IMG/VR virus record: IMGVR_UViG_3300042691_015688
Span: 1 to 28,338 of that record
DNA from: a virus
Length of the DNA: 28,338 nt
Strand: one strand, 5' to 3'
Each line of letters opens with the position of its first letter. The first letter of the stretch is position 1. The notes beneath the pieces were generated by a model that saw only the letters and a program-made list of their open reading frames with translations, made no database searches and was not told the origin of the DNA. Positions 2,895 through 22,325 of this stretch are shown here, one piece after another. The translations under genes and the position numbers were made by a program.

Positions 2895-3109
2895 CCTTAG
2901 AAGAGGCTCTGAGACGTACCTTTGCAAGTCTCGGTTCTACCCTTGCCGCATTTGCAACTATTGAGGTAACCCCCGGCGACAAGCCGAGCATCCTGATCGT
3001 CCCGACTGCTGGCCTGCTAACCCTTCTCGGGCATCTCAACGGGGCGAGACGCGAACAGAAACGCCGAACGGCTGGGGATGAAACCCCTGCTAGTGACCCC
3101 TTTTTGTAA
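2891..3109 (+). CDS. Small membrane protein, possible holin/antiholin
   Basis: A 72-residue protein starting at ATG 2891 (ATGA overlap with the previous stop; ribosome site GGAGAAG). It has an N-terminal amphipathic start (MTLEEALRRTFAS), one or two moderately hydrophobic segments (about 13-27 and 34-48) and a strongly basic C-terminal stretch around ARREQKRR. It is the last gene of the lysis cassette; the next operon's promoter follows directly. Function inferred from topology and place only. Confidence 0.55.
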   Translation: MTLEEALRRTFASLGSTLAAFATIEVTPGDKPSILIVPTAGLLTLLGHLNGARREQKRRTAGDETPASDPFL

Positions 3110-3115
3110 AAACCC

Positions 3116-3145
3116 TAGACACCATTAGTTTGTTCTGTATACAAT
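3116..3145 (+). promoter_or_regulatory. Promoter of the early operon (TAGACA-N18-TACAAT)
   Basis: A -35 hexamer TAGACA at 3116-3121 and a -10 hexamer TACAAT at 3140-3145 with an 18-base spacer. The same layout occurs at 8001-8030 (TAGACA-N18-TAGAAT), which supports both. The predicted +1 is base 3152. It lies in the first gap after the lysis genes and would drive the recombination/replication operon. Confidence 0.75.
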
Positions 3146-3151
3146 GAAGTC

Positions 3152-3183
3152 GTCGGGACAACCTCGACCTCAACCGTAAGGAG
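3152..3183 (+). promoter_or_regulatory. 5'-terminal mRNA hairpin and ribosome site, conserved with 8037-8067
   Basis: The predicted transcript begins with GTCGGG (3152-3157), a five-base loop ACAAC, and CTCGAC (3163-3168), a six-pair stem with one G-T pair. It is followed by CAACCGTAAGGAGCA, containing the Shine-Dalgarno AAGGAG at 3178-3183, seven bases before ATG 3191. The other copy keeps the stem with different bases and the same downstream block, suggesting a selected mRNA-stabilising or translation-controlling leader. Confidence 0.6.
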
Positions 3184-3190
3184 CAAGCAA

Positions 3191-3418
3191 ATGGGGATGG
3201 TTCACCTTCAAGGTGTCGGACGGGTTCCGGCAATCGAGGCAGGAGACCTTCAGGCCGGAATGGTCACGGTCTGGAATTACGGCTACCGAGAGCAGATCAT
3301 CACGATTGAGCCTCGGGGCGAAAAGCAGATCAAGGTGTGGCTCGTCAGCCTGCGAAACGGCGAGAAGTTCACTCGCGTCCTGAACAAGTCCCGACTCGTT
3401 GCGATTGACGAGGCCTGA
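3191..3418 (+). CDS. Hypothetical small protein, first gene of early operon
   Basis: A 75-residue basic protein led by a strong ribosome site (AAGGAG, 3178-3183). The sequence reads as a small beta-rich fold: hydrophobic/charged alternation in AGMVTVWNYGYREQIITIEP and KQIKVWLVSLRNGEKFTRVL, without membrane segments or metal-binding cysteines. No function recognised. Being the promoter-proximal gene, it should be among the first and most strongly made phage proteins, as is common for host-takeover peptides; that role is inference. Confidence 0.7.
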   Translation: MGMVHLQGVGRVPAIEAGDLQAGMVTVWNYGYREQIITIEPRGEKQIKVWLVSLRNGEKFTRVLNKSRLVAIDEA

Positions 3419-3419
3419 G

Positions 3420-3683
3420 ATGAAGACCCAAAACACGATCTCGAAACTTGATTGCGGAACCGCCGCAATGATCGTTCGTGCTGACATCGCACGATTCGCA
3501 AACGAACTACAGCCAGCCGAACTAGTCGCTCGCGCATGGGCGGTCGCTCAGGCTCACTACCACGGCTACTGCCCCTGCGAGGGCTGGGAGCCGTGCCGTG
3601 AGATGACCGAGAACGCAAGTCCCGAACAGATCGCAGAAGCGGTGGCCTCAGGCCTGCGTGTTTCCGAAGGATGGGAGGCCTGA
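3420..3683 (+). CDS. Hypothetical protein
   Basis: An 87-residue protein starting at ATG 3420, just after the previous stop; an upstream in-frame ATG at 3399 would overlap the previous gene more. The middle part (ARAWAVAQAHYHGYCPCEGWEPC) holds three cysteines and a histidine close together, hinting at metal binding, and the rest is helical. No family recognised. Same operon as its neighbours, with spacing that allows coupling. Confidence 0.6.
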   Translation: MKTQNTISKLDCGTAAMIVRADIARFANELQPAELVARAWAVAQAHYHGYCPCEGWEPCREMTENASPEQIAEAVASGLRVSEGWEA

Positions 3684-3684
3684 G

Positions 3685-4011
3685 ATGAAGAAGATCAACC
3701 AAACCACAGACCAGCGTTGGTTCGTCATCGTCTTTGAGTACATCCAAATCAGCGCAGACGAATGGGACGAATGCTGGGGAATCCGCACCACCTTCTCCTC
3801 ATTCCCGAAGGCCTACGAACACGCCGAAAAAGAACTAGCGGCGAACAGCGACCGAATGTTCCGAGTAGAGATCGGTCGTGAGTACGACGACCCGACTTGG
3901 GGAACGTGGGAAGAGGGCAGTTTTTACAGCGACCGCTATGAGCGGATCAGTCTCCAACTCATCAAGGATCGTGTAGAGATTGTAAACGAAGGCTACGGAG
4001 TGAAGCCGTGA
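3685..4011 (+). CDS. Hypothetical acidic protein
   Basis: A 108-residue acidic protein with ATG 3685 preceded by GGGAGG six bases upstream. It is rich in aromatic residues (WFVIVFEYIQ, WGTWEEGSFYSDRY), with a predicted mixed alpha/beta fold and no membrane segment. No family recognised. Acidic small early proteins of phages sometimes mimic DNA or bind host factors, but nothing here shows that directly. Confidence 0.65.
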   Translation: MKKINQTTDQRWFVIVFEYIQISADEWDECWGIRTTFSSFPKAYEHAEKELAANSDRMFRVEIGREYDDPTWGTWEEGSFYSDRYERISLQLIKDRVEIVNEGYGVKP

Positions 4012-5152: not shown

Positions 5153-5827
5153 ATGGACCTGTCTAACTACGTTGATGTAGCGGAACGCATCCGCATCTTC
5201 AAGGGTCTCTACCCGACCGGAAGTCTCCAGCCTGTGGACCCTGCGAGGCCTTACTGGGTCGAGACCATTGGCGACCGCACGTTTATCGTGTACGCATCAG
5301 CCGCCTATCGAACCCCTGACGACCCTCGACCGGGCATCGGACTGGCTTGGGAACCGTTCCCCGGTCGTACCCCGTACACGAAGGACTCGGAGCTCATGGT
5401 CTGCGAGACATCATCGTGGGGCAGGGCAATCGTCGCGACCCTTGCCGCAGACACCCAGCGGATCGCATCTCGTCAGGAAGTCGAGAACCGTATTCAGCAG
5501 GCACCAGCGAAGAAGGAGACGCGAGCGAAACTCGGAGAGAAGGCCCAGCCGACACCTGCCGATGCGACGCTGGACTACCCTACGGAACCGTCGCTCCCAG
5601 CCCCGTCAAAGGCACAGGTTCAGTACATCAGGCGTACCGCTCAGGCTCTCGCTGACGACCTTCAGACGACCGAGCAGAGCCTGCTTGACGGGCTGTGCGG
5701 TTGCGATCCCCAAGACCTTAACCCCGAAGCAGTACGGTTCGTCATCGAGGCCTTGACTCGAGGCCGACAGGACAAGAACAAGGTAGAGATTGACGCAGAG
5801 ACAGGCAGGGTGACGATTCGTGAGTAA
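5153..5827 (+). CDS. Putative single-strand annealing protein (Erf/Sak-like), partner of the exonuclease
   Basis: A 224-residue protein one base after the exonuclease stop. Residues about 30-110 hold the most conserved-looking part: WVETIGDRTFIVYASAAYRT, then PGIGLAWEPFPGRTPYTK and SELMVCETSSWGRAIVATLA. The E-T-x-x-W/V-G-R-A pattern recalls the core of Erf/Sak-type annealing proteins, and the gene pair with YqaJ supports it. Residues 110-150 are a Pro/Lys/Ala linker and 150-210 a helical C-terminal domain (KAQVQYIRRTAQALADDL). The family call is inferred from pattern and neighbourhood; a ssDNA-binding accessory is the alternative. Confidence 0.6.
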   Translation: MDLSNYVDVAERIRIFKGLYPTGSLQPVDPARPYWVETIGDRTFIVYASAAYRTPDDPRPGIGLAWEPFPGRTPYTKDSELMVCETSSWGRAIVATLAADTQRIASRQEVENRIQQAPAKKETRAKLGEKAQPTPADATLDYPTEPSLPAPSKAQVQYIRRTAQALADDLQTTEQSLLDGLCGCDPQDLNPEAVRFVIEALTRGRQDKNKVEIDAETGRVTIRE

Positions 5828-6514: not shown

Positions 6515-6750
6515 TGCGAAGTCGCTGGTTAGATGAGGCGGCGTGTCTTGATCTAGATGTGAACCTGTTTTTCCCTGAACCGGGGAAATTAGCCCACATT
6601 CAGGTCGCTCGAGCGAAGTCCATCTGTAAGTCGTGTACGGTTCGCGAGCAGTGTCTAGATTATGCGTTGAGTTTCTCTGATCGTTCTATTCCCGGCATAT
6701 GGGGTGGGACGACAGAGTCCGAACGACGACGACTAAAGAGGACACAATGA
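6514..6750 (+). CDS. whiB: WhiB-family iron-sulfur transcription regulator
   Basis: A 78-residue protein. ATG 6514 shares its A with the stop of ssb (TAATG). The WhiB layout is complete: Cys11 (W-x-D-E-A-A-C), Cys38-x-x-Cys41-x5-Cys47 for the [4Fe-4S] cluster, the phrase FFPEPG at 19-24, the turn GIWGG at 61-65 and the basic helix RRRLKR at 71-76. WhiB proteins bind the sigma-A subunit of RNA polymerase in Actinobacteria and respond to redox. A phage copy may redirect host polymerase or block host WhiB; phage WhiB proteins that repress host genes are known. It is the strongest marker that the host is an actinobacterium. Confidence 0.95.
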   Translation: MRSRWLDEAACLDLDVNLFFPEPGKLAHIQVARAKSICKSCTVREQCLDYALSFSDRSIPGIWGGTTESERRRLKRTQ

Positions 6751-7244
6751 AAGACGGTGTTGATCCGGCGAGCCTTCTAGGCCCGACGAAGGGTGATTGT
6801 GCCTGTGGCTGTGGCCTCTTCGGTACGTTGCGCAAACGTCCACTAAACCACATTCGAGGATGTACCTGCCCTAAATGTCGAGGGAAACGTAATCGTGCGA
6901 AGGGTGACGCGAAGGCTCGAGTGGCACGGAAGGCTCTAGGCCTTAAGGGTGCGAATACGCGACACGAAGAATTGTGGGGTGGCGGTATTCGGGTAGAAGT
7001 AAAAGCAGGTGCTCAGGTCTCGCCAGTTTGGACACGGTTCCGTCTTGCTGAGGAACAGTCCGAACAACATCGTGCGTTCGGGGATTCTCGCCCGTTCGTC
7101 CTCGTAGCGATGCCTGATGGTATGAAAGACGGACTAATAGTGACGAGGCTCTCAACGATACGAGAGACTGCCGCCGCTCTACTGGAGGAAATGTTTGATG
7201 AGTATCGAAGCAATGGTGTGGGCCTTAGAGCAGACGAACCTTGA
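6747..7244 (+). CDS. Putative PD-(D/E)xK nuclease with N-terminal zinc site
   Basis: A 165-residue protein starting at ATG 6747 (ATGA overlap with whiB). The N-terminal 50 residues hold six cysteines (CACGC at 18-22; CTCPKC at 39-44) with His35, a likely zinc knuckle, followed by a basic helix. Residues 70-130 read GANTRHEELWGGGIRVEVKAG and later RPFVLVAMPDG; Glu74 or 75 with Glu84-Val-Lys86 fits the E...ExK core of PD-(D/E)xK nucleases or Holliday-junction resolvase-like folds. It probably cuts branched or foreign DNA in the replication/recombination operon. Fold assignment is by motif only. Its 3' end overlaps the next gene by 47 bases. Confidence 0.55.
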   Translation: MKDGVDPASLLGPTKGDCACGCGLFGTLRKRPLNHIRGCTCPKCRGKRNRAKGDAKARVARKALGLKGANTRHEELWGGGIRVEVKAGAQVSPVWTRFRLAEEQSEQHRAFGDSRPFVLVAMPDGMKDGLIVTRLSTIRETAAALLEEMFDEYRSNGVGLRADEP

Positions 7245-7956: not shown

Positions 7957-8000
7957 AACCCCTGCGTAAAACACTATTTTGCGAGAATCTTAGAAAAACC
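7957..8000 (+). other. Short AT-richer gap before the second promoter
   Basis: This gap follows the initiator gene and holds a weak hairpin: CGTAAAA (7965-7971) can face TTTTGCG (7977-7983) with a five-base loop and one G-T pair. It might end the upstream transcript, but it is too AT-rich and lacks a T-run, so only weak support. Confidence 0.25.
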
Positions 8001-8030
8001 TAGACACCTTTACTAGATAGTGTTTAGAAT
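8001..8030 (+). promoter_or_regulatory. Promoter of the second operon (TAGACA-N18-TAGAAT)
   Basis: TAGACA at 8001-8006 and TAGAAT at 8025-8030 with an 18-base spacer, preceded by AAAAACC as in the copy at 3116. Predicted +1 is base 8037. The two elements and the spacer length are shared with the first promoter while the spacer sequences differ, which argues for function rather than a recent duplication. Confidence 0.75.
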
Positions 8031-8036
8031 GAGTAC

Positions 8037-8067
8037 GTCGGAACAAGCCGACCACAACCGTAAGGAG
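8037..8067 (+). promoter_or_regulatory. 5'-terminal mRNA hairpin and ribosome site, conserved with 3152-3183
   Basis: At the predicted +1 the RNA starts GTCGG (8037-8041), loop AACAAG, CCGAC (8048-8052), a perfect five-pair stem. It continues ACAACCGTAAGGAGCA with Shine-Dalgarno AAGGAG at 8062-8067, six bases before GTG 8074. The stem pairs differ from the first copy but pairing is kept. Confidence 0.6.
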
Positions 8068-8073
8068 CATTAA

Positions 8074-8502
8074 GTGATCACGAACGTAGACAAGGCCAAG
8101 GCCAAGGTCATCTCAGAGGAGATCAAGCAAGCCGTTGAGGCAATCCTCGCCAAGCACAACCTCGAAACCACCAAGATCAGCACCGGACACGGCGACTGGT
8201 TTGAGTTCAAGGTTCAGGCCACCGCAATCCAGTTGAGCCTCAACGGAGTCAATCTCGCCACCAAGCACGCACTTGCGTACACCAAGTTCGGATTCACCTC
8301 CTACACCAACGGCGAGGCCACCGAACTCACCGCACCGCTCGGAACCAAGTTCACCTTCCGCAACGCCGAATACATCTTCATCGGAATTGACACGGCGAAA
8401 AAGAAGAACCCCATCGTGATTCGGAGCGTCGTGAACGGCGCAGAGTACGGGATGCCCGAGAGCGGTATCAGTCTGATCAACGAAGCGGCGAAGGAGGCCT
8501 GA
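8074..8502 (+). CDS. Hypothetical protein, probably highly expressed
   Basis: A 142-residue protein starting at GTG 8074 behind the second promoter and an ideal ribosome site. It has an N-terminal helix (KAKAKVISEEIKQAVEAILAKH) then a beta-rich body (WFEFKVQATAIQLSLNG, TKFTFRNAEYIFIGIDTAKK). No catalytic or binding motif is recognised. Codon choice is unusually strict (AAG, ATC, GAG, ACC, CTC preferred), like the capsid and major tail protein genes and unlike its small neighbours, so the product is probably abundant. A DNA- or RNA-coating or host-takeover role would fit, but this is inference. Confidence 0.8.
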   Translation: MITNVDKAKAKVISEEIKQAVEAILAKHNLETTKISTGHGDWFEFKVQATAIQLSLNGVNLATKHALAYTKFGFTSYTNGEATELTAPLGTKFTFRNAEYIFIGIDTAKKKNPIVIRSVVNGAEYGMPESGISLINEAAKEA

Positions 8503-8503
8503 G

Positions 8504-8770
8504 ATGGACAAGGCCTTCTATAACGAGGCGGTCGACCGACAACTGCCGTACAGCCCACAAGCGTTACGAGCCGCTCTTGTCATCTTCCTCAGACATTGGG
8601 ATGACGAGACCCCTGACGAGGACATCGTCACGGCTCTTGACGAGGCCTCTGATCTCGCTGATCTCCCGTACGAGATTGAGGTGGACGAGACGCTAGAGAC
8701 CAAGACCCCGTACCAAGTCAGCGGCCTGATCACCAGCGTCGCTATCTACCTCACCGGCAAGACGTTCTAA
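8504..8770 (+). CDS. Hypothetical small acidic protein
   Basis: An 88-residue acidic protein with ribosome site AAGGAGG seven bases before ATG 8504. It is mostly helical (QALRAALVIFLRHWDDETPDE, VTALDEASDLADLPYEIEVD) with a C-terminal stretch that could be a buried beta strand or weak membrane segment (VSGLITSVAIYLTG). No family recognised. Same operon as the preceding abundant protein. Confidence 0.7.
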   Translation: MDKAFYNEAVDRQLPYSPQALRAALVIFLRHWDDETPDEDIVTALDEASDLADLPYEIEVDETLETKTPYQVSGLITSVAIYLTGKTF

Positions 8771-10328: not shown

Positions 10329-10831
10329 GCCCTCTTCCCTCAATCGTGTATGTACCGGTTGAGACAACCACATTCGGAGCTCACGACGCACTCCAAGAGG
10401 ACATTGAGTCGGGAGCGTTAGAACCCGACCTGACCCAAGTTGATTGGGAAGGCCTCGCAGAGATCGTCGCCAGCGAAGAAGAGAGCAAGCGGCAGGCCGA
10501 GATCGCTACAGCCCGAGACACATACGGGCGATGCGGCGAATGGCACGACCTTGCGATTAGCGTCGGCTGGACAGAAGAGGACTGGCCTACCCTCTCGAGG
10601 ATCATCTACCGTGAGTCACGCTGTATCCCCGAGGCCTGTTCACGGAGCGACTCGGGCCTAAAGTGTCGCGACGCTGGGCTAGTTCAGGTCAATCAGATTC
10701 ATCGCGAATGGCTCGCCGGTATGGGCTACTCATTCCCTGACGATCTCTTCGACCCTGCGATCAATCTCACGTTCGCCCGTCGTCTCTACGAGACCTCAGG
10801 GTGGAAACCGTGGCGTTGGCTCGCCGAATGA
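10220..10831 (+). CDS. Lipoprotein with lysozyme/transglycosylase-like domain
   Basis: A 203-residue protein. GTG 10220 is seven bases after AAAGGAG (10206-10212). It begins MRRMPFGLQR, has a hydrophobic core and an excellent lipobox LASC (22-25), so the mature protein would be lipid-anchored at Cys25 outside the membrane. Residues 25-115 are an acidic stalk with a helical part. Residues about 105-203 fit a lysozyme-like fold: WPTLSRIIYRESRC places Glu132 as the catalytic acid, GLVQVN at 153-158 is the hallmark turn, and a Trp-rich end (GWKPWRWL) closes it. It could trim peptidoglycan locally, help DNA entry or block superinfection; a lysis role is less likely because it is far from the lysis cassette. 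Its start lies inside the preceding gene (109-base overlap). Confidence 0.75.
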   Translation: MRRMPFGLQRILPCVLLASPFLASCGDDGTSPDSTLSPLPSIVYVPVETTTFGAHDALQEDIESGALEPDLTQVDWEGLAEIVASEEESKRQAEIATARDTYGRCGEWHDLAISVGWTEEDWPTLSRIIYRESRCIPEACSRSDSGLKCRDAGLVQVNQIHREWLAGMGYSFPDDLFDPAINLTFARRLYETSGWKPWRWLAE

Positions 10832-11973
10832 GATTCGTTAGCCTGTTCTCCGGCGTCGGAGGGTTTGATCTAGGCCTAGAACAAGCCGGGATGGAATGTG
10901 TCGCACAGGTCGAATGGGATCGGAACTGCCAAGCGATCCTTGCGAAACATTGGCCGAAAACCCCGAGATGGGGTGACGTAGCGAAAGTGTATGGAAGACA
11001 CCTACCGCCAGCCGAAGTCGTCGCGTTCGGATCACCCTGCCAAGACTTATCCCACGCAGGCAAACGAGCAGGCCTCAACGGCGACAAGTCCGGCCTGTTC
11101 TTTCAGGCGATCCGAATCATAAAGGAGATGCGCGATGCTTCAGCATCCCGACCAACTGGCCCTATTCCCCGATACGCAATCTGGGAGAACGTCCCCGGAG
11201 CACTTAACAGCAACAACGGACGAGACTTTCGGGCCGTCATCGATGCGCTGGCAGACATCGGGGCGGTGGCAATCGAATGGGCTGTGCTGGATGCGCAACA
11301 CTTCGGAGTCCCCCAGCGACGACGGCGCATCTTCCTCGTCGCTATCTTCGATCCTGCTACCGCCGAACGCTGTCCCGATCCGCTACTACCTGTCGGCAAA
11401 GGCCGCCGAGGGAATACTTCGGAGAGCCGAACGACGCTCGAGGACGATACCCCGACTACTGGAAGACGCTCTGACGACTCTCGCGAACAAACGCCCGAAG
11501 ATGACTCAGTCACCGTCTTCCAGCCCGGAGTAATGGTCAGGCAAGGCGCAGGGGTACTTCGCGACCTAGTCCCCTCTCTGCGAGCCGAGGCACACGCAGG
11601 AGACAACCAAGCGCACATCGCCCAGCCCATCGGGTTCTCCCATACTCAAGGCCTCGACCCCCAAGCCTCCGAGATTGCGTGGCCTACCCTGCGCTCCGAA
11701 GGAGGAGGACACGCCGTCCTAACGGAGTACGCATTACGCAAACTGACCCCTTTGGAATGCGAACGGCTGATGGGGTGGCCTGACGACCACACTCGTTGGC
11801 GAGCAGACGGGCAACAGCAGGCTGACGCTCATCGCTACCGGCAGTGCGGTAACGGGGTCGCGTCTCCCGTCGCTCGCTGGGTAGCCGAACAGATCATTAG
11901 GCTTGAGGAACTCAAAATTGAGGCGAAACGTGGTGTTGAGGCCGGATTACGGGAGATTGGGGACGGCGCATGA
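10828..11973 (+). CDS. C5-cytosine DNA methyltransferase
   Basis: A 381-residue enzyme starting at ATG 10828 (ATGA overlap). All core motifs are present: motif I FSGVGGFDLGLE (7-18) for SAM, motif IV GSPCQDLS (68-75) with catalytic Cys71, motif VI WENVPGAL (119-126) with Glu120, motif VIII QRRRRIFLV (163-171), and motifs IX-X in LTPLECERLMGWPDD and YRQCGNGVASPVARWV (337-352). The region 175-300 between VIII and IX is the target-recognition domain; its target cannot be read from sequence. It would methylate phage DNA, for protection or as the first step of a base hypermodification. Another reading frame with its own ribosome site is embedded at 11135-11533, opposite residues 103-235. Confidence 0.93.
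   Translation: MRFVSLFSGVGGFDLGLEQAGMECVAQVEWDRNCQAILAKHWPKTPRWGDVAKVYGRHLPPAEVVAFGSPCQDLSHAGKRAGLNGDKSGLFFQAIRIIKEMRDASASRPTGPIPRYAIWENVPGALNSNNGRDFRAVIDALADIGAVAIEWAVLDAQHFGVPQRRRRIFLVAIFDPATAERCPDPLLPVGKGRRGNTSESRTTLEDDTPTTGRRSDDSREQTPEDDSVTVFQPGVMVRQGAGVLRDLVPSLRAEAHAGDNQAHIAQPIGFSHTQGLDPQASEIAWPTLRSEGGGHAVLTEYALRKLTPLECERLMGWPDDHTRWRADGQQQADAHRYRQCGNGVASPVARWVAEQIIRLEELKIEAKRGVEAGLREIGDGA
11121..11127 (+). promoter_or_regulatory. Internal Shine-Dalgarno (AAAGGAG) for the embedded gene
   Basis: AAAGGAG at 11121-11127 lies inside the methyltransferase coding sequence, seven bases before ATG 11135, which opens a 132-codon frame. Ideal strength and spacing support real translation of the nested gene. 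Confidence 0.7.
11135..11533 (+). CDS. Out-of-frame gene embedded in the methyltransferase gene (YYLSAKA family)
   Basis: A 132-residue protein read in a different frame from the methyltransferase, lying entirely inside it. It has its own ribosome site (AAAGGAG, spacing 7). The sequence is not random: SGRTSPEHL (16-24), CWMRNTSESP (51-60), SLSSILLP (69-76) and YYLSAKAAEGILRRAERR (84-101) followed by IPRLLEDAL match, from memory, a recurrent phage protein (pattern FGxTSPE, W-x-NTxESP, LSxIL, YYLSxKAxxGILRRAExR) that accompanies phage C5-methyltransferases in other host phyla. Function unknown. Partnership with the methyltransferase, for instance modulating it, is inference. Alternative: a conserved shadow frame, which the ribosome site argues against. 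Confidence 0.72.
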   Translation: MLQHPDQLALFPDTQSGRTSPEHLTATTDETFGPSSMRWQTSGRWQSNGLCWMRNTSESPSDDGASSSSLSSILLPPNAVPIRYYLSAKAAEGILRRAERRSRTIPRLLEDALTTLANKRPKMTQSPSSSPE

Positions 11974-12119
11974 AGTTTTATGTTAGGACAGACCACTACT
12001 GCTCAAACTGCGAGGCTCACACGGGCTGGTTCGTGGAGGCGTACGACAACGGGACTGAGTACGCCTGCGATACCTGTGAGCAAATGTGGATAGAGGAAAC
12101 ACGGGATGACCTTGACTGA
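11970..12119 (+). CDS. Small zinc-ribbon protein
   Basis: A 49-residue acidic protein starting at ATG 11970 (ATGA overlap with the methyltransferase stop; GGGGA upstream). Cys11-x-x-Cys14 and Cys33-x-x-Cys36 are spaced as in a zinc ribbon (HYCSNCEAHTGWFVEAYD and YACDTCEQMW). Such mini-ribbons often bind nucleic acid or bridge proteins. It is the last gene of the methyltransferase transcript before a gene-free gap. Confidence 0.65.
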   Translation: MKFYVRTDHYCSNCEAHTGWFVEAYDNGTEYACDTCEQMWIEETRDDLD

Positions 12120-12310
12120 CGGCTCCGAGGTGCTGGTCGCTTGTTCCGCTGTGTAGAACACGCTTGAAGAGGACGCCGAGCAGTAGGCCTCGCCAGTCGG
12201 CCTGCCCCGTAGCGTCGCGTCTCCGAGGCAGGCCTAACCGCCGAGGGCAGGCGGCTCCTCGTATTCTGCCAAGGCTTGCGAACGAAAACCGCACAGGTCA
12301 TAATGTGTCC
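12120..12310 (+). other. Gene-free gap with GC-rich hairpins and a promoter
   Basis: About 190 bases without a convincing gene; the frame open from 12164 translates to Arg/Pro-rich sequence before it joins the ParB-like protein. Three inverted repeats are visible: TGTTC/GAACA (12142-12146 with 12156-12160), GGCCTGCC/GGCAGGCC (12199-12206 with 12227-12234) and CCGCC/GGCGG (12238-12242 with 12250-12254, loop GAGGGCA). They could form a terminator region for the upstream operon or a small structured RNA. The promoter for the next gene is at 12276-12304. No T-run follows the hairpins. Confidence 0.4.
12276..12304 (+). promoter_or_regulatory. Promoter for a leaderless ParB-like mRNA (TTGCGA-N17-CATAAT)
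   Basis: TTGCGA at 12276-12281 and CATAAT at 12299-12304 are separated by 17 bases, a good sigma-A-type match. The predicted +1, seven bases after the -10, is base 12311, which is the G of an in-frame GTG. No ribosome site precedes that GTG. Leaderless mRNAs starting directly at ATG or GTG are common in Actinobacteria. Confidence 0.5.
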
Positions 12311-12952
12311 GTGAACATTCGACCTGAGCTCAAAGAACTTGCCACACCGATTAACAAGATTAAGCCGCATCCTCGCAACGTACGGCAAGGAGACATCGGC
12401 GCAATCTGTACGAGTCTGACCGAACACGGACAGTACCGACCGATCGTCGTACAGAAGAAGTCGCGACACATCCTCGCAGGCAACCACACCTATCTCGCCG
12501 CTAAGAGCCTCGGCTGGGAAGAGATCGCCGTCACCTTCGTTGATTGTGACGATGAAGCCGCCCTGCGAATCCTCCTTGTAGACAACCGTGCCTCGAGCCT
12601 CGCAACCTACGACGACCACGCACTAGGTGATCTCCTTCAGGAACTAGCGGTCACCGACCGAGGCCTTACGGGAACCGGCTACGACGCTGACGACCTCGAT
12701 GACCTCCTGCGCCTCCTCGAGTCGCTCTCAGCGAACCCGATTGACCCCTACAAAGAGTGGGAAGGCATCTCCGACTATCGCTCCGAGGACAAGAACAGCG
12801 TGTTCCACACGACCGTGCACTTCGCGAGCGACGAAGACGCAGACCGATTCTTTGAGACGCTGAAAAGAGACAAGACAGGATCGTTCTGGTGGCCTGACAC
12901 CGATGGGCATCTCGGGTCAACCGTCAAGAAGCAGTTCGTTGCTGAGGCCTGA
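12311..12952 (+). CDS. ParB/sulfiredoxin-fold nuclease-like protein
   Basis: A 213-residue protein. Start taken as GTG 12311, which coincides with the predicted transcription start; GTG 12305 is the other choice and neither has a ribosome site. Residues about 12-80 are a ParB N-terminal-like domain: INKIKPHPRNVRQGD, LTEHGQYRPIVVQKK and ILAGNHTYLAAKSLGW (the GNHxxLAA box in place of the G-x-R box of true ParB), with VDNRASSLATYDD afterwards. The last 75 residues (FHTTVHFASDEDADRFFETL, SFWWPDTDG) are a separate small domain. Phage ParB-like proteins of this type are DNA nucleases or CTPase-type switches and recur beside modified-base enzymes. Position between methyltransferase and glycosyltransferase suggests a role in the same system. 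Confidence 0.8.
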   Translation: MNIRPELKELATPINKIKPHPRNVRQGDIGAICTSLTEHGQYRPIVVQKKSRHILAGNHTYLAAKSLGWEEIAVTFVDCDDEAALRILLVDNRASSLATYDDHALGDLLQELAVTDRGLTGTGYDADDLDDLLRLLESLSANPIDPYKEWEGISDYRSEDKNSVFHTTVHFASDEDADRFFETLKRDKTGSFWWPDTDGHLGSTVKKQFVAEA

Positions 12953-12954
12953 CG

Positions 12955-13860
12955 ATGCCACAACCCCGGTTCCCTCTCTTCATCCCGTCTAAAGGTCGTG
13001 CTGACGTAGCGTGTACGCCACGGTTCCTCGACTCAATCGATGTCGCGTACCGCCTCGTCATCGAAGAACAGCAGTACGAGGACTACAACAAATACTTCGA
13101 CGCGAGCAAACTCATTGTGTTGGACAAGCAGTATCAGGAGAACTACCCGTCACTCGACGAACACGGCTTGTCGTTCTCTAAAGGCTCAGGCCCAGCACGA
13201 AATTTCATTTGGGATTACGCCGTTGATGAAGGCCACGACTGGCATTGGATTATGGACGACAACATCCAACTGTTCGCGATGCTCCAAGACAACCAGCGAA
13301 TCCCTGTCGGTGACGGAACCCTCTTCCACGCTATGGAGACGTTCTGCCTGCGCTACAAGAACGTCGCGATGGCTGGGCCTCAGTACTGGATGTTCGCACC
13401 GTCTCGAGCCAAGTTGCCGCCGTTTACGACAGGGACACGCATCTACAGTTGTAACCTGATCCGTAACGACGTGCCGTTCCGTTGGCGAGGACGCTACAAC
13501 GAAGACACAATCCTGTCGCTCGATATGCTGAAGGCAGGCTGGAATACCGTCCTGTTCAACGCATTCCTCCAATACAAACTCACGACACAAACGATGAAGG
13601 GTGGCAACACCGAGGCCTTCTATTCACAGAAGGGGACGCTACCGAAGTCGCAGATGCTCGTAGATCAACACCCCGATGTCGCAAAGGTTGCGTGGCGATT
13701 CGGACGCTGGCATCACCACGTCGATTACAGCCCGTTTAAGAACCTCGGACTTATCCCCGAGGACGACTACATCCCGTCATCAGAACCGCTCTACAAGTTC
13801 CGTCTCGAGGACAACGAAGAGCGACCGTTCAGACCACCCGGAATCAAGAACTGCCGATGA
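12955..13860 (+). CDS. TET-associated-type glycosyltransferase (TAGT/GREB1-like), putative DNA-base glycosyltransferase
   Basis: A 301-residue protein. It shows the TAGT pattern: PLFIPSKGRAD (8-18) at the nucleotide-sugar end, YRLVIEEQQYEDYNKYF, RNFIWDYA (82-89), HWIMDDNI (97-104) with the Asp-Asp-Asn metal/sugar-nucleotide motif, GPQYWMF, TRIYSCNLIRND, RWRGRYNEDTILSLDML (177-193) and TQTMKGGNTE. In phages these GT-A-like enzymes are known to add sugars to 5-hydroxymethylcytosine made by TET dioxygenases from methylcytosine. Here a C5-methyltransferase lies upstream, but no TET-like dioxygenase is visible in the window, so the acceptor base is unknown. The next gene, a SAM methyltransferase, overlaps its stop. 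Confidence 0.78.
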   Translation: MPQPRFPLFIPSKGRADVACTPRFLDSIDVAYRLVIEEQQYEDYNKYFDASKLIVLDKQYQENYPSLDEHGLSFSKGSGPARNFIWDYAVDEGHDWHWIMDDNIQLFAMLQDNQRIPVGDGTLFHAMETFCLRYKNVAMAGPQYWMFAPSRAKLPPFTTGTRIYSCNLIRNDVPFRWRGRYNEDTILSLDMLKAGWNTVLFNAFLQYKLTTQTMKGGNTEAFYSQKGTLPKSQMLVDQHPDVAKVAWRFGRWHHHVDYSPFKNLGLIPEDDYIPSSEPLYKFRLEDNEERPFRPPGIKNCR

Positions 13861-22282: not shown

Positions 22283-22325
22283 TAGGCCTCGGAGGGATCA
22301 CCCTCCAGTATCCCTCCGAGGCCTA
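22283..22325 (+). terminator. Perfect 16-bp hairpin after the capsid gene
   Basis: TAGGCCTCGGAGGGAT (22283-22298) pairs perfectly with its complement at 22310-22325 across an 11-base loop. The loop carries a second CCCTCC that could pair with GGAGGG instead. The stem is very stable but no T-run follows, so it may be a factor-dependent or partial terminator, or an RNA end protector that raises capsid mRNA over the genes downstream. Both arms contain AGGCCT. Confidence 0.8.

What the first reader, a model, noticed from the sequence alone, without database searches (positions are those of the whole stretch)
3116..3183. Twin promoters whose RNAs begin with the same hairpin
The two operon promoters (3116-3145 and 8001-8030) share TAGACA-N18-TA(C/G)AAT. 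At the exact predicted +1 of each (3152 and 8037) a GTCGG-type stem begins, followed by the common block ACAACCGTAAGGAGCA or CTCAACCGTAAGGAGCA with the Shine-Dalgarno. The stems use partly different bases yet keep pairing, and the promoter spacers differ, so the shared parts look selected. A 5'-terminal hairpin may protect the mRNA or be a binding site for a phage or host regulator.
Basis: partly seen in the sequence, partly recalled or inferred. Interest (0 to 1): 0.6.

Follow-up and report, generated by a model that had tools for sequence, protein, structure and literature searches.

The report
Early phage mRNAs capped by hairpins
Both early operons of this uncultured actinobacterial phage start from near-identical promoters whose RNA should begin with a small hairpin just before the ribosome-binding site, and many related phages put a hairpin of different sequence at the same spot, so the structure looks selected, probably to protect the 5' end of early mRNA.

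Summary
TAGACA-N18-TA(C/G)AAT lies at 3116-3145 and 8001-8030. A hairpin starts 7 nt after each -10 box (3152-3168; 8037-8052), followed by an identical CAACCGTAAGGAGCA ribosome-binding block. The two leaders are 78% identical over 77 bp. The hairpins are not significant from this genome alone.

Eighty relatives found through the syntenic resolvase gene make the case. Hairpins cluster at the predicted +1 of early promoters: 17 of 100 dereplicated promoters against 3.2 in shuffles, 20-fold rarer further downstream. Stem sequences differ between phages and covary; G-U wobbles and variable loop lengths argue for RNA, not a DNA operator. Several relatives also carry similar twin leaders. Some leaders have lost the stem while keeping the promoter, so it helps but is not indispensable.

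Best reading: strong SigA-type early promoters give mRNAs with a 5'-terminal hairpin that hinders 5'-end-dependent decay, plus a start-associated ribosome-binding repeat. The structure is well supported; the function is inferred. Closest known: E. coli 5'-terminal stabilising stem-loops, mycobacteriophage SAS/ESAS, HK022 put. New variant of known kinds, apparently undescribed in these phages.

The parts
3109..3115 (+). A-rich stretch AAAACCC just upstream of -35, shared with 7994-8000
   Evidence: twin alignment
3116..3145 (+). promoter 1, TAGACA-N18-TACAAT
3152..3168 (+). 5'-terminal hairpin 1, GTCGGG(ACAAC)CTCGAC, 6 bp with one G-U
3169..3185 (+). start-associated block CTCAACCGTAAGGAGCA with Shine-Dalgarno AAGGAG
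3191..3418 (+). first gene of early operon 1, 75 aa, no family match; operon then runs through YqaJ recombinase, SSB, WhiB, resolvase-like protein and replication initiator
7994..8000 (+). A-rich stretch AAAAACC upstream of -35
8001..8030 (+). promoter 2, TAGACA-N18-TAGAAT
8037..8052 (+). 5'-terminal hairpin 2, GTCGG(AACAAG)CCGAC, 5 bp
8053..8069 (+). start-associated block CACAACCGTAAGGAGCA with Shine-Dalgarno AAGGAG
8074..8502 (+). first gene of early operon 2 (GTG start), 142 aa, no family match and no similarity to the first gene of operon 1
3410..3422 (+). junction repeat GAGGCCTGAGATG, stop of one gene beside start of the next, operon 1 copy 1
3675..3687 (+). junction repeat GAGGCCTGAGATG, operon 1 copy 2
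8494..8506 (+). junction repeat GAGGCCTGAGATG, operon 2 copy

Best explanation
These are the leaders of the two early operons of a WhiB-bearing actinobacterial siphophage. Host RNA polymerase with its main sigma factor starts each transcript at about 3152 and 8037, so the RNA begins directly with a 5-6 bp hairpin followed after about 9-10 nt by a strong Shine-Dalgarno in a repeated start-associated block. The hairpin most likely works as a structural cap: with almost no unpaired nucleotides at the 5' end it hinders 5'-end-dependent decay (pyrophosphate removal, RNase E or RNase J entry) and keeps the short leader from folding over the ribosome-binding site. Shown by computation: the promoter, hairpin and block layout, its repetition, its recurrence at +1 in relatives with covarying stems. 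Inferred: the start site, decay protection, and use of the host sigma factor.
For: Hairpin starts pile up 4-9 nt after the -10 hexamer in syntenic relatives: 32 of 136 promoter candidates at offset 3-9 against 0.012 per 7 nt at offsets 10-30. After dereplication 17 of 100 against 3.2 in shuffles, maximum 9 in 200; with other -10 definitions 24 against 7.5 and 11 against 1.6, above the maximum of 500 shuffles each time. Stems are unrelated in sequence between clades, e.g. TCGCCAC(aaggg)GTGGCGA, CGACGGAC(aaggg)GTTCGTCG, TATGGGG(aaaa)CCCCATA, TCGGGC(atcc)GCCCGA. Two-sided changes with pairing kept: L115 twin leaders TCGGCGGC(gaggg)GTCGTCGA and TCGGGCGC(gaggg)GCGTTCGA; in the UAAGGAA-loop clade pair 4 is UA, CG or GC and pair 5 AU, GC or CG. 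In the CCCTGAGGAGGG clade one pair passes through GC, GU and AU, and another through UA and UG. The two hairpins of one genome can differ entirely (L087, L119), which favours structure over a sequence-specific binder. The position right at the 5' end is what E. coli 5'-terminal stabilising stem-loops need (Emory 1992, Bouvet and Belasco 1992, cited in PMC3997798 and PMC7509114).
Against: No 5' end is mapped. In the window itself the folds are only modestly better than shuffles. Some relatives keep promoter and start-associated block without a stem (L118 6676, L110 2373, L066 leader 2). Covariation inside the closest aligned clade is wobble-only and not above the column-shuffle control (140 and 321 of 500). 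The invariant UAAGGAA loop in one clade suggests an additional sequence-specific role there. No close relative of the window's own leader was found: searches gave only contexts without the promoter and hairpin.
Confidence: 0.55

Rival explanations
1. The hairpin is the binding site of a phage-specific RNA-binding regulator or antiterminator, like lambda boxB with N: one protein recognises the matching hairpins of both early transcripts.
For: Twin hairpins within one phage are often similar while different phages differ (window; L076, L082). The loop UAAGGAA is invariant in 12 leaders while the stem covaries; the loop GAGGG is kept in both L115 leaders. Stem and loop size (5-6 bp, 5-6 nt) resemble boxB (own knowledge).
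Against: In L087 and L119 the two hairpins share neither stem nor loop. The loops of the window's own pair differ. No boxA-like element stood out. Position is fixed at +1, which boxB does not need. No candidate RNA-binding gene was identified.
Confidence: 0.2
2. The inverted repeat is a DNA operator for a phage repressor overlapping the start site of both early promoters; RNA pairing is incidental.
For: Both early promoters of a phage are expected to be co-regulated; twin leaders are common in relatives. The related ESAS repeats of cluster K phages contain -35/-10 boxes and are argued to be DNA sites (PMC3203893, PMC11373665).
Against: G-U pairs, which break DNA dyad symmetry, are common (8 of 13 at one pair, 5 of 13 at another). 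Loop length varies from 3 to 10 nt, which would shift half-sites around the helix. Dyads inside the -35/-10 spacers of 20 leaders are not enriched (4 against 3.4).
Confidence: 0.13
3. HK022 put-like cis RNA: the nascent hairpin touches RNA polymerase and reduces pausing or termination in both early operons.
For: put also comes as two related RNA elements in the two early operons of a phage, and putL lies just downstream of its promoter (PMC9378689).
Against: put is about 70 nt with two stems and a conserved sequence; these leaders are one short stem of free sequence, and the next 15 nt are the ribosome-binding site.
Confidence: 0.06
4. The leaders are simply copies of one ancestral promoter region, with no function of the hairpin.
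For: The two leaders are 78% identical over 77 bp. Window folds are weak against shuffles. L066 leader 2 lost the stem yet keeps 89% identity over 63 bp.
Against: Does not explain the family-wide pile-up of hairpins at +1 or two-sided changes with pairing kept.
Confidence: 0.06

Closest known systems
5'-terminal stabilising stem-loops (E. coli ompA, papA; B. subtilis aprE leader)
   Same: stem-loop at the very 5' end of an mRNA, followed by an unstructured leader with a strong Shine-Dalgarno; sequence of the stem free
   Different: known from host mRNAs and tested there; here a phage group uses it on both early operons, and half-life is unmeasured
Start-associated sequences (SAS) of cluster K mycobacteriophages
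   Same: short conserved repeat containing AGGAG a few nt before start codons, beyond what 16S pairing needs; CAACCGTAAGGAGCA here and CCCTGAGGAGGG in relatives are analogous
   Different: sequence differs (GGGATAGGAGCCC there); 2 copies in the window and several per relative instead of 11-19
Extended SAS (ESAS) of cluster K mycobacteriophages
   Same: repeated intergenic unit with SigA-like promoter and inverted repeat upstream of a start-associated sequence
   Different: the ESAS inverted repeat carries the -35/-10 boxes and its departures do not support RNA pairing; here the repeat lies downstream of -10, starts at +1 and covaries
HK022 putL/putR antitermination RNAs
   Same: pair of related structured RNAs in the two early operons, one directly after its promoter
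   Different: about 70 nt and two stems, conserved sequence
Lambda nutL/nutR boxB
   Same: small hairpin shared by both early transcripts and phage-specific
   Different: not at +1, needs boxA and N protein; neither found here

Membership tests
5'-terminal stabilising stem-loop | stem begins within a few nt of the transcript's 5' end | tested here: met
   stem begins 7 nt after the -10 hexamer, the predicted +1; family peak at offset 4-9; the start itself is predicted only
5'-terminal stabilising stem-loop | structure rather than sequence conserved | tested here: met
   unrelated stems at the same place, two-sided changes
5'-terminal stabilising stem-loop | longer mRNA half-life when present | not testable with these tools
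   needs RNA measurements
SAS (cluster K mycobacteriophages) | 13-bp GGGATAGGAGCCC within a few nt of start codons, 11-19 copies | tested here: not met
   the repeat read at the two starts is CAACCGTAAGGAGCA, two copies only; works like SAS but is not SAS
ESAS | 17-bp imperfect inverted repeat with -35 and -10 inside it, no RNA pairing support | tested here: not met
   hairpin lies downstream of -10 and pairing is supported in relatives
HK022 put | about 70 nt, two stem-loops of conserved sequence | tested here: not met
   single stem of 16-17 nt, Rfam scan at gathering thresholds empty
lambda nut site | boxA plus boxB bound by N-like protein | tested here: inconclusive
   no boxA-like element noticed by eye in the 40-nt leaders; no dedicated boxA search was run and no N-like protein identified

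The most novel reading that the evidence does not exclude
A large, uncultured group of WhiB-bearing actinophages caps its early mRNAs with rapidly changing 5'-terminal hairpins, in some clades with a conserved SD-like loop (UAAGGAA, AAGGG, GAGGG) that is read by a phage factor or serves as a ribosome standby site, so that promoter, hairpin cap and start-associated repeat form one exchangeable, phage-specific early-expression cassette.
Probability: 0.25. Interest if true: 0.7.

Novelty: new variant of a known kind. Interest (0 to 1): 0.5.

Why it matters
How phages of abundant uncultured actinobacteria switch on early genes is largely unknown. A structured 5' end placed exactly at the start site in many relatives, with sequence free to change, gives a simple testable rule: the hairpin is selected as structure. 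It provides ready-made 5' caps and early promoters for actinobacterial expression tools, and its positional signature also marks likely start sites in metagenomic phage genomes without RNA data.

Tried and rejected
Exact-pattern scan for the ribosome-binding block in all viral contigs gave 24 hits in unrelated contexts at roughly chance number. Terminase and capsid relatives (77-100% identical segments) are short contigs; the leader was not detected in any of them. YqaJ gave two distant relatives. The resolvase gave 80 syntenic loci, but nothing in cultured phages or in the held bacterial genomes, so no prophage and no host were identified. Pontimonas phage phiPsal1 (similar gene order) and phiC31 show no promoter-hairpin-SD leader by the same scan. 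A DNA-operator reading of -35/-10 spacer dyads was tested and not supported. Column-shuffle covariation in the CCCTGAGGAGGG clade was not significant and is not used as proof. Duplication of the first genes of the two operons was tested and not found. Outside the family, GTCGG hairpins at +1 after GACA-N18-TANNAT gave 14 contigs, 7 of them with full TTGACA; a control with the hairpin 10 nt further down gave 10 contigs, 5 of them with TTGACA but none with a Shine-Dalgarno and start codon following. Suggestive, but the numbers are small and several hits are near-duplicates.

Full report
What is there. The window is a 28,338-base virus record with its genes on the + strand: lysin-like genes, an early region (YqaJ recombinase, SSB, WhiB, a resolvase-like protein that the tools did not name, replication initiator), a second early operon with DNA-modification genes (C5-methylase, ParB-type, TET-associated glycosyltransferase), then terminase, portal, HK97-type capsid and tail genes. 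Its terminase is 43% identical to that of Pontimonas phage phiPsal1 and 39% to phiC31. The described leaders are at the stated coordinates, each before the first gene of an early operon.

Check of the observation. The promoter pattern, the 77-bp similarity and the 15-base block are far beyond chance inside the window. The hairpins alone are not: z-scores are -0.60 and -2.11. Between the twins only one pair changes (G-U against G-C), one pair is extra in leader 1 and the loop shifts by one base; this keeps pairing but is not compensation. Whether the hairpin matters therefore had to be decided with relatives.

Relatives. The resolvase-like ORF 6699-7241 found 80 syntenic loci in uncultured viral contigs (46-75% identity), most also with YqaJ and WhiB in the same order. 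No cultured phage or bacterial genome matched. Scanning these loci for -35/-10 plus Shine-Dalgarno and start codon, hairpins of at least 5 bp begin almost exclusively 4-9 nt after the -10 hexamer, where transcripts start: 32 of 136 candidates at offset 3-9 and only 0.012 per 7 nt at offsets 10-30. With near-identical leaders removed, 17 of 100 have such a hairpin, against a mean of 3.2 and a maximum of 9 in 200 dinucleotide shuffles. With other -10 definitions it is 24 against 7.5 and 11 against 1.6, above all 500 shuffles; contigs outside the family show 6 against 2.2 and 1 against 0.4, within the range of their shuffles. phiPsal1 and phiC31 give no such leader.

Structure, not sequence. The hairpins are unrelated between clades. 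Pairing survives two-sided changes: in L115 the two leaders of one genome read TCGGCGGC(gaggg)GTCGTCGA and TCGGGCGC(gaggg)GCGTTCGA; in a clade with the invariant loop UAAGGAA the stem varies at three pairs, two of them with plainly compensatory types. In the clade whose genes start with CCCTGAGGAGGG, eleven distinct true leaders pair at both positions left free in the search pattern, with pair types GC, GU and AU at one of them; slid controls pair 50% or less against 93%, but column shuffles are not exceeded because variation is wobble only. Frequent G-U pairs and loops of 3 to 10 nt speak for RNA and against a DNA dyad.

Twin leaders in the family. Similar pairs of early leaders occur in several relatives (L066, L076, L082, L110, L115, L120), but the hairpins of one genome may also be entirely different (L087, L119) or one may be missing (L066, L110). 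The hairpin is thus an often-kept, replaceable structural module.

Mechanism. The element sits exactly at the 5' end, is free in sequence, tolerates loop changes, and is followed by a short unpaired leader with a strong Shine-Dalgarno. That is the anatomy of 5'-terminal stabilising stem-loops known from E. coli (cited in PMC3997798 and PMC7509114). I commit to decay protection and insulation of the ribosome-binding site at 0.55. A phage-specific RNA-binding factor remains possible (0.2), mostly because of the invariant SD-like loop in one clade; a DNA operator (0.13), a put-like polymerase effect (0.06) and mere copying (0.06) are less likely.

Relation to known systems. Cluster K mycobacteriophages have start-associated repeats with a promoter-bearing inverted repeat (PMC3203893, PMC11373665, PMC12699233). 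The start block here works like SAS but is not SAS; the hairpin is not ESAS, because ESAS repeats hold the promoter boxes and were judged not to pair as RNA. HK022 put (PMC9378689) shares the two-early-operon layout only. A further parallel to SAS is the exact repeat GAGGCCTGAGATG at three stop/start junctions in both operons.

Limits. No transcript data exist; the window's own closest relatives lack this region in the held contigs; promoter candidates were defined by consensus and include false ones, which dilutes rather than creates the +1 peak; the promoter and hairpin criteria were chosen after first seeing some of these leaders; the several scans were not corrected for multiple testing.

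Noticed in passing
L052:4482-4560, L058:12287-12362, L089:6284-6360, L091:4907-4983 and 5401-5477, L094:4266-4342, L104:8487-8563, L105:8825-8901, L106:1326-1402, L112:6018-6094, L113:5472-5548, L119:8723-8799, L120:1990-2062 and 8455-8531: A tRNA-like minihelix in leaders before early genes: acceptor-like stem GGGTG/CATCC around a canonical T-arm (GGTTCAANYCC), no anticodon arm, then ACAAGGCAACAACGCCGAA and a ribosome-binding site. Five of 11 pairs change on both sides and keep pairing. ARAGORN finds no tRNA in the ten loci scanned and the one Rfam search made (L119) gives only a sub-threshold mascRNA hit. It could be a minimal RNase P substrate or processing site. Not in the window.
   Followed up: partly
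window 3410-3422, 3675-3687, 8494-8506: Exact 13-base repeat GAGGCCTGAGATG at three gene junctions in both early operons, combining the upstream gene's stop with the next start; SAS-like translational coupling element.
   Followed up: partly
L089-L119 (for example L117:615, 1422, 6812; L119:2133, 2948, 8290, 8797): Start-associated sequence CCCTGAGGAGGG in several copies per contig, present at early gene starts; analogous to mycobacteriophage SAS.
   Followed up: partly
L068:908, L071:2798, L072:1811, L076:1164, L082:8604: 5' hairpins whose loop holds an invariant UAAGGAA, a second Shine-Dalgarno-like sequence ahead of the real one; possible ribosome standby site.
   Followed up: partly
L120:1682-1711 and 8168-8197: Identical 30-bp stretch with two TTTGCAAAA repeats over the -35 region of both early promoters; candidate operator for joint control.
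   Followed up: no
window 22283-22325: Perfect 16-bp inverted repeat with 11-nt spacer directly after the major capsid gene; likely terminator or processing site.
   Followed up: no
window 10801-13860: C5-methylase, ParB-type protein and TET-associated glycosyltransferase in a row; suggests hypermodified cytosine in the phage DNA.
   Followed up: no
L125:2976, L128:6625, L129, L130, L131:2136, L136: Contigs found by DNA pattern alone, relation to the window not tested, with TTGACA promoters followed by a GTCGG hairpin at +1, then Shine-Dalgarno and a start codon; the 5' hairpin may be wider than this family.
   Followed up: partly
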